Below, one piece after another: positions 22,262-31,822 of a stretch of 64,000 nt of DNA. Position numbers and translations under genes: made by a program. The notes under the pieces were generated by a model, which saw only the letters and a list, made by a program, of their open reading frames with translations, was not told where the DNA came from and did no database searches. Source of the DNA: Paenibacillus sp. FSL R5-0623 (lineage in GTDB: Bacteria > Bacillota > Bacilli > Paenibacillales > Paenibacillaceae); assembly GCF_037974265.1 (NCBI RefSeq), contig NZ_CP150233.1, positions 1,674,001 to 1,738,000 of the forward strand, written 5' to 3'. Each line of letters opens with the position of its first letter. The first letter of the stretch is position 1.

Positions 22262-23103
22262 ATGGTAGTAAATAAACAACCAATCGATCAAAGAACCGTT
22301 GCAGAAGACATAAAAGTTAAGAGGATGCAGCCGCAAAACGATTAAAGCGTATTGTAATCAGGTCGAACGTTTTCTGAGCAGCTTTCCACTTAAAAGTACG
22401 GATGTGACTACATCAAATGTTCAGCCGTATTGTTTAGGTTTGCTTGAGCGAAGGATCTCCCATTCGAGCGTGAATCAGATGATTAGCGCGCTCCGCTTTT
22501 ATTGTAAACATGAGCTCCTTCATCCTACAGATATCCAATATATTCGTCCCAAGAAGCAGACCGAGCTTCCACAAGTGTTGTCCGAAAAGGAAGTTGTTCA
22601 ATTACTCAAATCCGTAACCAACCCTAAACATAAGGCCATATTGTTTCTGACCTATTCTTCCGGGCTTCGTGTAAGTGAAGGTGTGCGTCTGCGTTGCAGT
22701 GATCTGGATGTTGAAAGGAAAACACTCCTCGTGAGACAGGGGAAGGGGCAAAAGGATCGGAGGACGCTTCTTTCAAATCTCGCTTGGGATTTCGTGCAGA
22801 AGTACATAGCTGAAAATAGACCCAATCGTTGGCTGTTTCCGGGGCAATCTATCTTACTGAGCGGAGCGTGCAGAAGGCGTTTGAAGAAGCAAGACGACGT
22901 GCAGGTATTGTGAAAAAGTAAGTATTCATGCGCTGAGACACTCCTTCGCCACTCATTTTCTGGAAAACGGGACAGACCTGCGCTACATTCAGGAGTTACT
23001 TGGTCATACGAGTGCACGTACAACTCAGCGATATACGCATGTTAGTACGAAAAATATCCAGCGTATTCAAAGCCCGCTGGATCGGATGGATTTGGGAGAT
23101 TGA
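22262..23103 (+). pseudogene. XerC-like tyrosine recombinase of the cassette array (three single-base frameshifts)
   Basis: Three one-base corrections restore a protein of about 280 residues: one A fewer near 22311, one base more near 22850 and one A more near 22913. It then has an N-terminal SAM-like core-binding domain (LRGCSRKTIKAYCNQVERFL) and the catalytic residues of tyrosine recombinases: Arg in SSGLRVSEG, Lys in GKGQKDRR, HALRHSFATH, LLGHTSARTTQRYTH with the nucleophile Tyr. The segment before HALRH is short, so the extra domain of integron IntI proteins is absent. An uninterrupted frame covers 22404-22913 only. It faces the cassettes, with the 32-nt block 48 bases after its stop. Because every lesion is in a short homopolymer, it may be intact in the organism. 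Confidence 0.85.
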
Positions 23104-23150
23104 GTACTAGGCTACCCTTCCCTTTTTTTACTCGAATTTTTCTTCGCAAA

Positions 23151-23182
23151 TGTAACAATATGGGTTATCATATACGTAGTTC
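23151..23182 (+). repeat. 32-nt block after the recombinase (attI-like candidate), copy 2
   Basis: Identical to 9512-9543. It ends TATACGTAGTTC; the next bases differ between the arrays. If it is the primary attachment site, exchange would occur at the GTT of GTAGTTC. Confidence 0.65.
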
Positions 23183-23184
23183 GG

Positions 23185-23224
23185 ATAATGGACGTATTCA
23201 CGAAGTACATAAATTAGATGTTAT
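23185..23224 (+). repeat. Cassette site with inner deletion (array 2, position 0)
   Basis: The left arm ATAATGGACGTATTCACG and the right end GTTATAGGAAATG follow the site consensus, but the inner hairpins and most of the right arm are missing. It lies directly behind the 32-nt block, as if a first cassette had been lost. Confidence 0.5.
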
Positions 23225-23256
23225 AGGAAATGGCTTTGAGAGGATGAAGTTAAAGA

Positions 23257-28697: not shown

Positions 28698-29240
28698 ATG
28701 AAACATATTTTCACAGAAGATAATATCAAATGGTTCATTGGAATCACTATACCTGTGATTGTTACAGTATCTGGTTGGATCTATGTTTATAGGCTCGGGC
28801 AGAAAAATCTTAAAAGAGATAAACAAATAACAACTTATATAAATACATTTAATTTCATGAAAGATCCAATAAACGATGTAATTCAAAAATATTCAAAACT
28901 ATCTACATATTTATTTTTGACCTATACACGAATACAGCAGCTAAACAAAGATAATCTGCTGTTAGAATCAGATAAAGAATTTCTTTTAGAATCGTTTAAT
29001 ACAAAGAAATTTGAATTATTAAAGAATGATGCAAGTGAAGCTTTTCTCAAGTTTACATATGCTTGGGAGCAATATGAAATTGTATTACTTCCTCTTGTTG
29101 AACAGAGACATGCACTACAAGATGAATTTCAAGAACTAATTCAAATTTCTAGTAAAGCACATACAGAATATTTCACATTTCTTTATTGCATGAATCAAGA
29201 AATAGAGATCGTGGAAAAGTCCAAAGGAACATCTAATTAA
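28698..29240 (+). CDS. Single-pass membrane protein of unknown function (cassette)
   Basis: A 180-residue protein with one N-terminal membrane helix (FIGITIPVIVTVSGWIYVYR) and a helical cytosolic domain (about residues 45-175). The frame is open into the cassette site from 28644, but the true start is ATG 28698, with GGAAGGGCAGG upstream. No family is recognised. The layout (anchor plus helical domain) resembles small defence-associated membrane proteins, but that is analogy only. No complete site is found after it. Confidence 0.7.
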   Translation: MKHIFTEDNIKWFIGITIPVIVTVSGWIYVYRLGQKNLKRDKQITTYINTFNFMKDPINDVIQKYSKLSTYLFLTYTRIQQLNKDNLLLESDKEFLLESFNTKKFELLKNDASEAFLKFTYAWEQYEIVLLPLVEQRHALQDEFQELIQISSKAHTEYFTFLYCMNQEIEIVEKSKGTSN

Positions 29241-29665
29241 AACTCTTCAAGATTACCATGATAAGAGTTTAGATTTCTTCGCATGTATTAGGGATGTGAA
29301 TTTAAACCTACAAAACTTTATCTTTAAAGACTTATTAGGACAAACAGTTAAAAAGAGAATAGTGACTGACTCCAAATACTTAACGATAGACACATTAATG
29401 ACAAAGCATAACAAATCGTAGGTTGTTCGAGAAGAAGTATCTTTTAGATAACAACATATCGATGCATTTGGTTCTCGGTCCGGTAGGGGACCTTTTTGAT
29501 GATAAATATGAGAAGGCACAATTGATAGGAGATAAACAACATAATTACGATATTGACTATGAACATTTAAAACTAACTTCTGATGAAGCATATAATTATT
29601 TTAAAGGTTGTTTTTATACTATATATGACAAGAATGAAAACTTAGATACCATACCAATCTTGTAA
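29236..29665 (+). pseudogene. Unknown gene split by a one-base frameshift
   Basis: From about 29236 one frame reads LQDYHDKSLDFFACIRDVNL, NLQNFIFKDLLGQTVKKRI, continuing to TAG at 29419. From 29423 the next frame continues LFEKKYLLDNNISMHLVLGP and ends at 29665 (IPIL). One base removed near 29419-29421 joins them into about 140 codons. There is no clear start; ATT 29236 lies 8 bases after AAAGGA. I do not recognise the protein. It is broken or mis-assembled, directly upstream of Shedu. Confidence 0.5.
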
Positions 29666-29688
29666 GCTTACTCGTAAAGGGAGGTCCT

Positions 29689-30900
29689 ATGATTAAATTT
29701 GAAGAGATCGGTGATGAAATTATAGTTCGATATATTCCAAGAGATGGGCTCCATTGGGTAATAAAAAAATTTGATGATAATGAAAAGATAGCTATTGGCA
29801 AAACCTTTTACTTTGAAAAGAATGATTTAATTAAGGACATCGACTTAGAAGAATTTACTATAATAGAGGAGGTACAATTTTCTTTTGCCAAGCGAGAAGG
29901 TGATTATTTTAGAGTCAATAAAACTGCAATTAGAGTAGAGAAGGAATTACTAATCCACAAAAATATAAAGTTCCAAATTAATATGTTTAAGACATTTAAC
30001 AATATCTCTATTTTCAGAAGAATTTTTGATGTCATAGAAGGAGATTTGTCTATTGGACCCGATAAATCGGATTTACCAGTAGAAGAGTTCAATAAGCTAT
30101 TGAAAATATTCCCCAATTCCACTGAAGTACGGAAATATTCCAATGCTAGGATTAGTCAGATACTAAAGGAATATGTAAATACAAAACGAGAGTTTGTATT
30201 AGAATATAATTCTTACATGTCTAAGAAGTTAGTGGAAAAGAGTATTAAGTCAAGCTTAAGTGCGACATTTGCTGAGTACGAAGTAAGAAAGTATCAATAT
30301 GTAATGGAACGTCTTAAATATATGCTGAAAAATGAAAATGGCTACACTGAATCAGATTGGCAAAACGAAATTATAGACGTCTTGTTATTGATTTACCCTA
30401 AATATATCCGAGTATTTAAAGAAGTGAGATTCAGAGATGAATATAGTTTAAAACAACGAAGATTAGACTATATGCTAATTGACTCAAGTGGGAATGTTGA
30501 TGTTGTTGAAATAAAAAAACCAAATTTTAATGCTCTGATTTCTCAACATACATATAGAGATAATTATGTTCCAGTTAGAGAACTATCAGGTACGATTATG
30601 CAAGTAGAAAAGTATTTGTTTCATTTGAACAAGTCGGGGAGACAAGGTGAAAAAGATTTAACAAATAAATATAGGGAGTTCCTTCCGAGTGGTTTCGAGA
30701 TTAATATTACAAGTCCTAGTGCTATCATTATTCTTGGAAGAGAAAAGGAACTGAATAGCGAACAACTTCGAGATTTAGAAGTTATCAAAAGAAAATATAA
30801 AAATGTAATGGATATTGTTACATATGATGATCTAATTAGACGGTTAGAAGGCATTATCGGTAAATTTCAAAATCAATTATCCGAACCTAATCCGAGATAA
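29689..30900 (+). CDS. Shedu-family anti-phage nuclease (DUF4263)
   Basis: A 403-residue cytosolic protein. An N-terminal domain (about 1-200) of strands and helices precedes the Shedu nuclease domain: WQNEI (Gln225), then RRLDYMLIDSSGNVDVVEIK with Asp260, Glu274 and Lys276 as D...ExK catalytic residues. TIMQVEKYL and AIIILGREKEL are further family hallmarks. Shedu proteins form tetramers and cut DNA to block phage. AAAGGGAGG lies 6-7 bases before ATG 29689. It is a single-gene defence system, fitting the cassette format. The preceding gene is broken. Confidence 0.9.
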   Translation: MIKFEEIGDEIIVRYIPRDGLHWVIKKFDDNEKIAIGKTFYFEKNDLIKDIDLEEFTIIEEVQFSFAKREGDYFRVNKTAIRVEKELLIHKNIKFQINMFKTFNNISIFRRIFDVIEGDLSIGPDKSDLPVEEFNKLLKIFPNSTEVRKYSNARISQILKEYVNTKREFVLEYNSYMSKKLVEKSIKSSLSATFAEYEVRKYQYVMERLKYMLKNENGYTESDWQNEIIDVLLLIYPKYIRVFKEVRFRDEYSLKQRRLDYMLIDSSGNVDVVEIKKPNFNALISQHTYRDNYVPVRELSGTIMQVEKYLFHLNKSGRQGEKDLTNKYREFLPSGFEINITSPSAIIILGREKELNSEQLRDLEVIKRKYKNVMDIVTYDDLIRRLEGIIGKFQNQLSEPNPR

Positions 30901-31031
30901 TGGGCAATTTAAGCAACATACTCTCAAGTAAATAAAATTTATGAGCCATATTTAGATAGAAGGCATATTTACTCATTACAAATCTCTGGATATCAATAAA
31001 TACATTGAAATTTTCTGAGGGAGACTACAAG

Positions 31032-31822
31032 ATGTTGAAAGACAAAGTTAGATTGATTATTAAAGGTCCAGTTATGTCGATGTGATATTGGGATTATCAT
31101 TAAGGAATATACTTTTGAAATTTTTTAGTAGAAAGGTGCTGTTTGAGTTGATCCATCAGGTAATTCATTTTTATATTAACAAACTAGGTAATTATAATTT
31201 AGTCTTTAATAACATGAAGGTATATTGGTTTGGATTTATTAGTTTGTTAGGGTTAGTTAGTATTGCCTTTTTATTTATTCCTAATGACTACAAGTTTTAT
31301 GGATTTGTAATTTACCTCATACTAACAATTATAGGATTAAACATTGTGAACATTAAAGCTAAGAAAATCGTTCTTACTAAATATGGACTGAAACAAGATG
31401 AAAGAATGTGGGGTGGTTCTGAATTTAATCTATATAAGGAAAATGAATTAAAAAAATATTTAAAGAATGAACTAGGTTTAAATTTATCGAAAAGCTGTAC
31501 TAAAATAATTGAAGCCCTAAATAAGGAAATTGAAAATACTAAACTCACAATTTTTTTTGTTCCGGGCATATTTGTTGGTCTTTTTATACCAATATGGAAC
31601 CAGTATGCTATCACTCAATTCAAAAATATAAGTTTAATGTCCGAAGCAATAACAGTACTAGGTGTTAATATTATAGTAATATTTATGATAACTTACGTGA
31701 TTTCACTTCTTAGATTTGTTATGTCTGATGTAGTGAGTTTGAGAAGAAACAGATTAAAAGAACTAGTAAGCTTAATTGAAGGTATTGATTTGAGAAGCAG
31801 TGATGAAGACTCTGAGAAGTGA
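31032..31822 (+). pseudogene. Membrane protein gene with a one-base frameshift near its start
   Basis: GAGGGAG precedes ATG 31032, and this frame (MLKDKVRLIIKGPVMSM) stops at 31079. Adding one A to the run at about 31065 gives MLKDKVRLIIKRSSYVDVIL and continues in the frame that stays open from 31082 to 31822. The full protein has about 263 residues with two pairs of membrane helices (WFGFISLLGLVSIAFLFIP and following; LTIFFVPGIFVGLFIPIW and following) and a cytosolic helical loop between. I do not recognise it. It is the last gene of array 2. Confidence 0.65.

What the first reader, a model, noticed from the sequence alone, without database searches (positions are those of the whole stretch)
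22262..31822. Integron-like gene-cassette array with folded recombination sites in a probable Paenibacillus
A tyrosine recombinase is followed by a fixed 32-nt block and then by same-strand one- or two-gene segments, each bounded by a repeat. Five complete repeats (23739-23851, 24423-24534, 25409-25571, 28203-28362, 28571-28662) share a left arm near ATAACATAATATTCACGC and a right arm near CGTGAATACAGGAACGTTAT. They have inner hairpins and conserved TTGGTCTGC, and the 3' flank follows GTTATnnGAAAnT. This is the architecture of attC sites and cassettes. Integrons are known almost entirely from Gram-negative lineages, so such an array here would be new or very little described.
Basis: partly seen in the sequence, partly recalled or inferred. 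Interest (0 to 1): 0.95.

Follow-up and report, generated by a model that had tools for sequence, protein, structure and literature searches.

The report
Gram-positive integrons with a different integrase
Bacteria that are likely Paenibacillus carry arrays of gene cassettes, the same cassette turning up in unrelated neighbourhoods, bounded by sites predicted to fold back on themselves and headed by a recombinase that lacks the signature insert of known integron integrases and likely captures and shuffles these cassettes, including predicted phage-defence genes, much as integrons do in Gram-negative bacteria.

Summary
The window's recombinase gene (22263-23103) is broken, but an intact 369-aa relative heads another array 39 kb upstream in the same genome. 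In 19 of 20 fetched integrase loci an array follows on the same strand; the 20th contig ends. Three tests support an integron-like mechanism. Each cassette's two ends are complementary to each other (136 cassettes; 89 hold-out), with only a trace of this towards the next cassette. An attI-like block lies 100-146 nt after the integrase stop in 23 of 27 loci. Near-identical cassettes sit in unrelated contexts with breaks at G^TTA, once twice in one genome. The integrase lacks the ~42-aa insertion of IntI (20 of 20) and has a weakly HARP-like N-terminal domain. One Flavobacterium relative shows the same end geometry. Window cassettes include DitAB; Shedu lies beside the array. It works like an integron but fails the IntI test. 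Recombination was not assayed; only open-licence papers were searched. Verdict: new variant of a known kind.

The parts
22263..23103 (+). broken integrase gene (pseudogene) of the array; catalytic-domain stretches 22575-22910 and 22912-23049 in different frames
23202..23223 (+). attI-like site GAAGTACATAAATTAGATGTTA, crossover predicted at G^TTA (23220/23221)
   Evidence: an attI-like head was found at this place after 22 of the 26 other integrases tested; first-cassette head pairs with first-site tail 15/18
23221..23847 (+). cassette 1, ORF 23257-23715 (152 aa; only weak PADLOC matches, E 0.0035 and 0.009)
   Evidence: ends 15/18
23739..23851 (+). attC-like site 1
   Evidence: 43.1 bits
23848..24530 (+). 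cassette 2, ORF 24022-24360; 87% identical over 522 nt to a cassette in G205
   Evidence: ends 12/18
24423..24534 (+). attC-like site 2
   Evidence: 52.6 bits
24531..25567 (+). cassette 3, ORF 24570-25373
   Evidence: ends 16/18
25409..25571 (+). attC-like site 3, long-core class
   Evidence: 30.2 bits, E 3e-4; weaker with filters off
25568..28358 (+). cassette 4, two genes: DitA-like 25628-27094 and DitB-like 27084-28175 (predicted anti-phage system by PADLOC label)
   Evidence: E 6.5e-203 and 2.1e-97; ends 15/18
28203..28362 (+). attC-like site 4, long-core class
   Evidence: 41.4 bits; weaker with filters off
28359..28658 (+). cassette 5, no ORF of 60 aa or more listed within it
   Evidence: ends 12/18, below the cross-cassette maximum of 13
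28571..28662 (+). attC-like site 5, 92-nt class
   Evidence: 98.1 bits
28659..29500 (+). cassette 6 with an ORF ending at 29240 and a decayed half-site whose TAAC is at 29449
   Evidence: ends 16/18
29689..30900 (+). Shedu SduA gene next to the array (cassette status not shown)
   Evidence: E 1.2e-139
13459..13542 (+). partial or decayed attC-like site (right arm 13514-13532 exact)
   Evidence: (18.1 bits)
14462..14553 (+). attC-like site closing a segment with a DUF4279 gene (13987-14418)
   Evidence: (82.5 bits)

Best explanation
This is an integron-like cassette array whose codirectional tyrosine recombinase likely excises and inserts gene cassettes at sites predicted to fold as single strands, with the crossover predicted between G and TTA. 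Shown by sequence: an integrase gene (intact upstream in the same genome, broken in the window); an attI-like site ~120 nt after it; cassettes with a median body of 749 bp, each ending in a site of mostly 73-218 nt; cassette-specific complementary ends; and near-identical cassettes in unrelated contexts. Inferred: cassettes pass through a circular form in which tail, core and head join into one long imperfect hairpin. It would have an outer 6-bp stem, a 2-nt loop, a 9-bp R stem, an asymmetric 4/7-nt spacer, an 8-bp L stem and three inner hairpins. The bottom strand probably folds and is cut, and the circle is then inserted at attI next to the integrase. The N-terminal HARP-like domain, in place of the IntI insertion, may read the branched hairpin (HARP as a branched-DNA reader is recalled knowledge). 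Most window cassettes have no known function; one matches an anti-phage system (DitAB), and a Shedu gene lies beside the array.
For: Same-cassette end pairing: 476 pairs at offsets 1-4 against 285 (sd 8.7, max 319 of 2000 permutations) in 136 cassettes; in 89 hold-out cassettes 500 of 712 against 236 (sd 12.5, max 278). The same test detects a Vibrio superintegron (31 cassettes, about 8 bp). Six window cassettes give 15, 12, 16, 15, 12 and 16 of 18, against a cross-cassette mean of 8.9 and maximum of 13 in 30 comparisons. Movement: 27 pairs share a body aligned over >=90%; 20 of 27 have both 200-bp flanks under 0.70 identity; these pairs fall into 15 cassette families by my grouping, 11 of them with such a pair. 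One cassette is present twice in G244 with 1 mismatch in 674 nt, similarity ending at the shared GTTA. attI in 23 of 27 loci. Arrays downstream and codirectional in 19 of 20. Site structure: covariation 0.190 against 0.117, 0 of 500 shuffles. Circle form more stable than array form in 177 of 211; bottom strand more stable than top in 166 of 211. The best fold match of the integrase model is IntI 2a3v (E 5e-16).
Against: No recombination, circle or expression was measured. Two of six window cassettes (2 and 5) have ends below the cross-cassette maximum. Pairing with the next cassette is slightly above chance (310 against 285, sd 8.7), from shared composition or relatedness. The three window sites folded alone as DNA give only z -0.3 to -2.5, and two of them do not form the outer stem; the one L020 site gives -4.5 and -5.5. 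66 G.T against 87 A.C pairs is not a significant strand signal (p 0.11). Some shared cassettes carry different cores, so the core does not always travel unchanged. Across genomes the integrase and the exact site pattern overlap imperfectly: 49 both, 39 sites only, 31 integrase only, 176 neither. Several Bacteroidota relatives with the same domain make-up show no repeat array in up to 10 kb (L087, L100, L101, L105).
Confidence: 0.9

Rival explanations
1. The repeats are a MITE- or REP-like transposable element that spread between genes; the segments are not mobile cassettes.
For: Inverted arms, short length, many copies; two lone right-arm hits elsewhere in the genome.
Against: 329 of 330 sites share their locus's main orientation (loci were chosen for clusters or integrases); sites follow an integrase in 19 of 20 loci; cassette-specific end complementarity spans the gene, not the repeat; near-identical gene segments move with their ends.
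Confidence: 0.02
2. The repeats are structured RNA elements (attenuators, terminators or a regulatory RNA) between cotranscribed genes.
For: Covarying three-hairpin fold; longest ORF on the site's strand in 197 of 228 cassettes.
Against: In stems, G.T pairs (allowed in the RNA strand) are not in excess of A.C (66 against 87); the bottom strand folds better in 166 of 211; no Rfam family matches; the outer stem pairs bases that lie a whole cassette body (median 749 bp) apart.
Confidence: 0.03
3. Cassettes are shuffled by ordinary homologous recombination or by XerCD-like double-strand recombination at repeats, without folded single strands.
For: Cores are alike (mean column identity 86% among 66 sites of one class), and some shared cassettes have different cores.
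Against: On the head side similarity breaks at one point, G^TTA; the tail-side break cannot be placed as finely because neighbouring cores resemble each other. Arms vary between cassettes while complementarity is kept, which a double-strand sequence reader would not need; a dedicated integrase plus attI heads the arrays.
Confidence: 0.12
4. It is an ordinary IntI integron acquired from Gram-negative bacteria.
For: NCBIfam integron-integrase model TIGR02249 is hit (203 bits, cutoff 265); C-terminal SP-L-D stretch shared with IntI.
Against: The IntI-specific insertion is missing in 20 of 20; the family forms its own clade (99/98; 100/99); the integrase is codirectional with the array; the site model finds nothing in a Vibrio superintegron.
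Confidence: 0.03

Closest known systems
Chromosomal (sedentary) integrons with IntI, e.g. the Vibrio superintegron
   Same: Integrase gene, adjacent attI, codirectional cassette array, 3' site per cassette, crossover at G^TT, same-cassette complementary ends (Vibrio control 31 cassettes), varied gene content, defence genes
   Different: Integrase lacks the ~42-aa IntI insertion and carries a weakly HARP-like N-terminal domain; integrase points the same way as the cassettes with attI after its stop; end pairing beyond TAAC/GTTA is 5 bp, a 2-nt break and 6 bp rather than one run of about 8 bp; site core with three conserved hairpins
[quoted passage not shown]
   Same: Region B of this genome (2551323-2563621): sites and cassettes with none of the genome's eight PF00589 matches nearby
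   Different: Sites are of the type described here; an attI-like relic remains at L022:10537
Archaeal XerA / bacterial XerC-XerD
   Same: Tyrosine recombinase core without the IntI insertion; NF040815 XerA is the best NCBIfam hit (215.7 bits, cutoff 220)
   Different: Heads cassette arrays; has the C-terminal SPLD stretch and the N-terminal extension
SMARCAL1 HARP domain (PDB 4o66) and related XPB/UvsW domains
   Same: Best match of the N-terminal domain in the PDB profile search (E 0.1) and Foldseek (prob 0.84, E 0.14); Pfam HARP in 18 of 47 at E<=0.1, best 1.5e-5

Membership tests
Integron (IntI-based) | Integrase with the IntI-specific additional domain around patch III (a defining characteristic according to PMC9668308, passage) | tested here: not met
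   Alignment A6: 20 of 20 relatives lack the insertion present in IntI1, IntI2 and a Vibrio IntI; 15 aa against 57 aa between aligned blocks; TIGR02249 below cutoff
Integron (IntI-based) | attI site next to the integrase | tested here: met
   23 of 27 loci, 100-146 nt after the integrase stop
Integron (IntI-based) | Array of cassettes each ending in an imperfectly palindromic attC-like site (R''-L''-L'-R') | tested here: met
   330 sites in 44 loci; paired outer and inner arms
Integron (IntI-based) | Cassette head and tail complementary (crossover G^TT, circular intermediate) | tested here: met
   Vibrio control. The circle itself is inferred
Integron (IntI-based) | Cassette mobility between contexts | tested here: met
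   20 of 27 shared pairs with both flanks unrelated; intragenomic copy. Comparative, not experimental
Integron (IntI-based) | Bottom-strand folded attC with extrahelical bases as substrate | tested here: inconclusive
   Bottom strand predicted more stable in 166 of 211; G.T/A.C counts not significant; extrahelical bases of the classical kind not examined
Integron (IntI-based) | Recombination by the integrase shown in an assay | not testable with these tools
   -
MITE/REP element | Dispersed in both orientations without cassette structure | tested here: not met
   1 of 330 in minority orientation; own genome 11 of 11 forward, 2 of them lone
cis-regulatory RNA family | Match to a known Rfam family | tested here: not met
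   0 matches at gathering score in 119 kb
HARP domain | Match above Pfam's curated cut-off | tested here: inconclusive
   Best 24.9 bits against cut-off 25; 18 of 47 members at E<=0.1
Xer/dif cassette modules (pdif) | dif-like 28-bp sites recombined by XerCD (recalled) | not tested
   no dif search was run

The most novel reading that the evidence does not exclude
There is a second branch of integrons, spread over Bacillota, Bacteroidota and perhaps archaea, that current integron finders miss. Its integrases read folded single-stranded cassette sites with a HARP-like branched-DNA domain instead of the IntI insertion, and a Treponema IntI carrying both features (L140) hints at how the two branches are related.
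Probability: 0.5. Interest if true: 0.96.

Novelty: new variant of a known kind. Interest (0 to 1): 0.93.

Why it matters
Integrons are usually presented as a Gram-negative machine defined by IntI. A widespread Gram-positive counterpart (exact site motif in 88 of 295 Paenibacillaceae genomes searched) with a recombinase that lacks the IntI hallmark would change that definition. It would make the evolutionary origin of cassette capture testable and would open a large, hardly explored pool of cassettes, including predicted phage-defence genes. It also offers a possible new structure-reading recombinase for genetic tools.
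Full report
Where it is. The window is G000:C1:1674001-1738000 of a 6.97-Mb single-contig genome. Named close relatives of its intact integrase are from Paenibacillus (P0002, P0004, P0005: 89-90% identity), so a Paenibacillus host is likely. The pattern GNATACNGGNNCGTTA occurs 11 times in the genome, all forward, and its reversed control 0 times. Nine hits fall in three regions: an array at 1658940-1662991 behind an intact integrase (1657090-1658199), the window's remnant and array (1687.5-1702.7 kb, the array behind a broken integrase), and region B (2551323-2563621), with no integrase near. 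Two hits are lone.

The sites. Arms ATAAC-(4 nt)-TATTCACG and CGTGAATA-(7 nt)-GTTAT pair, and between them lie three hairpins. For 66 distinct 92-nt sites, 93.3% of cells pair (89.6% in shuffles), 121 cells change on both sides (46.6), and covariation is 0.190 (0.117); 0 of 500 shuffles reach these. The structure was written from the consensus of these sites and related sequences can exceed shuffles, so this is support, not proof. Longer sites enlarge the inner hairpins. A covariance model built from the 66 sites gives 262 matches at E<=0.05 in 27 loci, which include those 66 and weak antistrand echoes, and 192 at E<=0.01 in 20 integrase loci not used to build it, again with echoes. It gives none at E<=0.1 in 203 kb of controls that include a Vibrio superintegron and five other recombinase loci of this genome. 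Rfam has nothing.

Distribution. The exact motif GAATACNGGAACGTTAT is in 88 of 295 Paenibacillaceae genomes, with 0 reversed-control hits in the rows shown. The integrase (E<=1e-80) is in 80 of 295. Both: 49; sites only: 39; integrase only: 31; neither: 176; Fisher p 5e-12, not corrected for relatedness. The integrase-only class partly reflects divergent sites: G012, G055, G095, G145 and G150 lack the exact motif but have arrays. I fetched 20 of the 80 integrase genomes, chosen for spread and contig room; 19 have an array on the same strand after the integrase, none has a site by my finder in the 2.3-3.9 kb before it, and the 20th contig ends 190 bp after the gene. In the class, 18 of 299 genomes carry the integrase (E<=1e-60), four of them outside the family.

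Cassette ends. In an array, each site is the tail of one cassette, a core, and the head of the next. In 136 cassettes from 24 loci, bases next to TAAC in the tail pair with bases after GTTA in the head of the same cassette at 0.74-0.92 for offsets 1-5 and 8-12, with a break at 6-7. Random pairs give 0.28-0.52 at the variable offsets; offsets 4 and 5 are conserved bases (0.91 and 0.70 at random). Pairs with the next cassette are close to random, with a small excess (310 against 285 at offsets 1-4). Pairing stops after offset 13-14. In 89 cassettes from the 20 loci fetched later the result repeats: 500 of 712 against 236, sd 12.5. The same test on 31 Vibrio superintegron cassettes gives a signal over about 8 bp only. 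This is the signature expected if cassettes live as circles cut and joined at G^TTA. In the window, cassettes 1, 3, 4 and 6 show it clearly (15-16 of 18); cassettes 2 and 5 (12) stay below the cross-cassette maximum of 13.

attI. In 23 of 27 loci the head that best matches the first site's tail lies 100-146 nt after the integrase stop; in the near relatives it is preceded by GAAGTACATAAATTAGAT or close variants, in the distant ones by looser versions.

Movement. Of 269 cassettes in 44 loci, 27 pairs share a body aligned over at least 90%; 20 of 27 have both 200-bp flanks under 0.70 identity, a level that includes the neighbouring core. The pairs are not independent: by my grouping they are 15 cassette families, 11 of them with such a pair. 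This genome's L020:9095 cassette is 99% identical to one in G205 in an unrelated neighbourhood. G244 holds one cassette in two arrays with 1 mismatch in 674 nt, similarity ending at the shared GTTA. Some shared cassettes have different cores (body 0.96-0.98, core 0.31 and 0.59); I cannot explain this fully.

The integrase. It has the tyrosine-recombinase domain (PF00589) and a SAM-like domain. R222, K247, H312, R315, H338 and Y347 are invariant in the 47 sequences; calling them catalytic rests on general knowledge of the family. It lacks the ~42-aa insertion of IntI, as do all 20 aligned sequences. The predicted model (pLDDT 81, pTM 0.47) is nearest to IntI 2a3v. An extra N-terminal domain of about 80 residues, present in 19 of the 20, has HARP domains as its best matches in two PDB comparisons, all weak. 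The clade is well supported (99/98; 100/99); its place relative to IntI is not resolved.

Beyond the family. Of 80 related loci, 79 were measured. Relatives with the N-terminal extension and no insertion occur in Bacillota, Bacteroidota, Spirochaetota and an Undinarchaeales MAG; proteins with an insertion of about 41 aa lack the extension, except one Treponema protein that has both; many relatives have neither. Flavobacterium enshiense (L091) has ten sites of unrelated sequence behind such an integrase, and its nine cassettes show nearly the same end geometry: offsets 1-6 paired, break at 7-8, 9-12 paired. Rufibacter (L094) has about eleven sites.

Cargo. In 228 cassettes the longest ORF is on the site's strand in 197, opposite in 19, and under 60 aa in 12; median body 749 bp. 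Window cassette 4 matches PADLOC DitA (6.5e-203) and DitB (2.1e-97), and SduA (1.2e-139) follows the array. Region B genes match DUF1643, HAD, S51 peptidase, nucleotidyltransferase, glyoxalase and NUDIX families, and more weakly ferritin-like and AAA. Vibrio chromosomal integrons are described as biobanks of defence systems (PMC12409362, passages).

Strand. Predicted DNA folding is better for the circle form than the array form in 177 of 211 cassettes, and better for the bottom than the top strand in 166 of 211. This agrees with bottom-strand use in attC (PMC8946536, passages) but is a prediction; single window sites fold poorly on their own.

Prior description. Ten searches of the open-licence library, judged mostly by listing, showed no report of this system. 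IntegronFinder 2.0 reports one complete integron in Firmicutes, Limnochorda pilosa, and a few CALIN (PMC9024848, passages); a review lists Firmicutes and Bacteroidota among phyla with integrons (PMC8618304, passage). Some of those could in principle be this system; I could not check.

Noticed in passing
L140 (Treponema sp. MAG), match 4185-5312: Integrase with both a HARP-like N-terminal stretch and a ~41-aa IntI-type insertion; sits in the IntI clade.
   Followed up: partly
L091:11750-20220 and L094:12120-20704: Cassette arrays with quite different site sequences behind HARP-bearing integrases in Flavobacterium enshiense and Rufibacter.
   Followed up: partly
L119:598-4710 (HGW-Firmicutes-8): Five repeats ending in GTTGTT before an integrase without the N-terminal extension; the array lies on the other side of the gene.
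   Followed up: no
L022:10537: attI-like block at the start of region B although no integrase is there; perhaps an integron that lost its integrase.
   Followed up: partly
window 9527: Copy of the sequence that precedes attI after the integrase, with no integrase seen next to it; perhaps a relic of a further platform.
   Followed up: no
L057:4723-4802 (- strand): The only site in minority orientation among the 330 counted.
   Followed up: no
L074 (G086): Three near-identical 287-bp cassettes, two in tandem and one further along the array.
   Followed up: no
G000 L022:13875 vs G244 L060:10687; G000 L020:12156 vs G244 L060:11288: Same cassette body with a different core length and sequence, as if cores were exchanged or deleted.
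   Followed up: partly
window 17012-18817 and 21314-21568: The 84-aa ORF repeats the C-terminus of the 601-aa protein, a partial duplication next to the array.
   Followed up: no
L022:18294-19414: Two ORFs that look like an IS3-type transposase pair inside region B (from the translations; the name is recalled).
   Followed up: no
L158 (Calditrichia MAG) 1027-5878: Four-copy repeat near an insertion-bearing IntI-type integrase, possibly an ordinary integron array.
   Followed up: no
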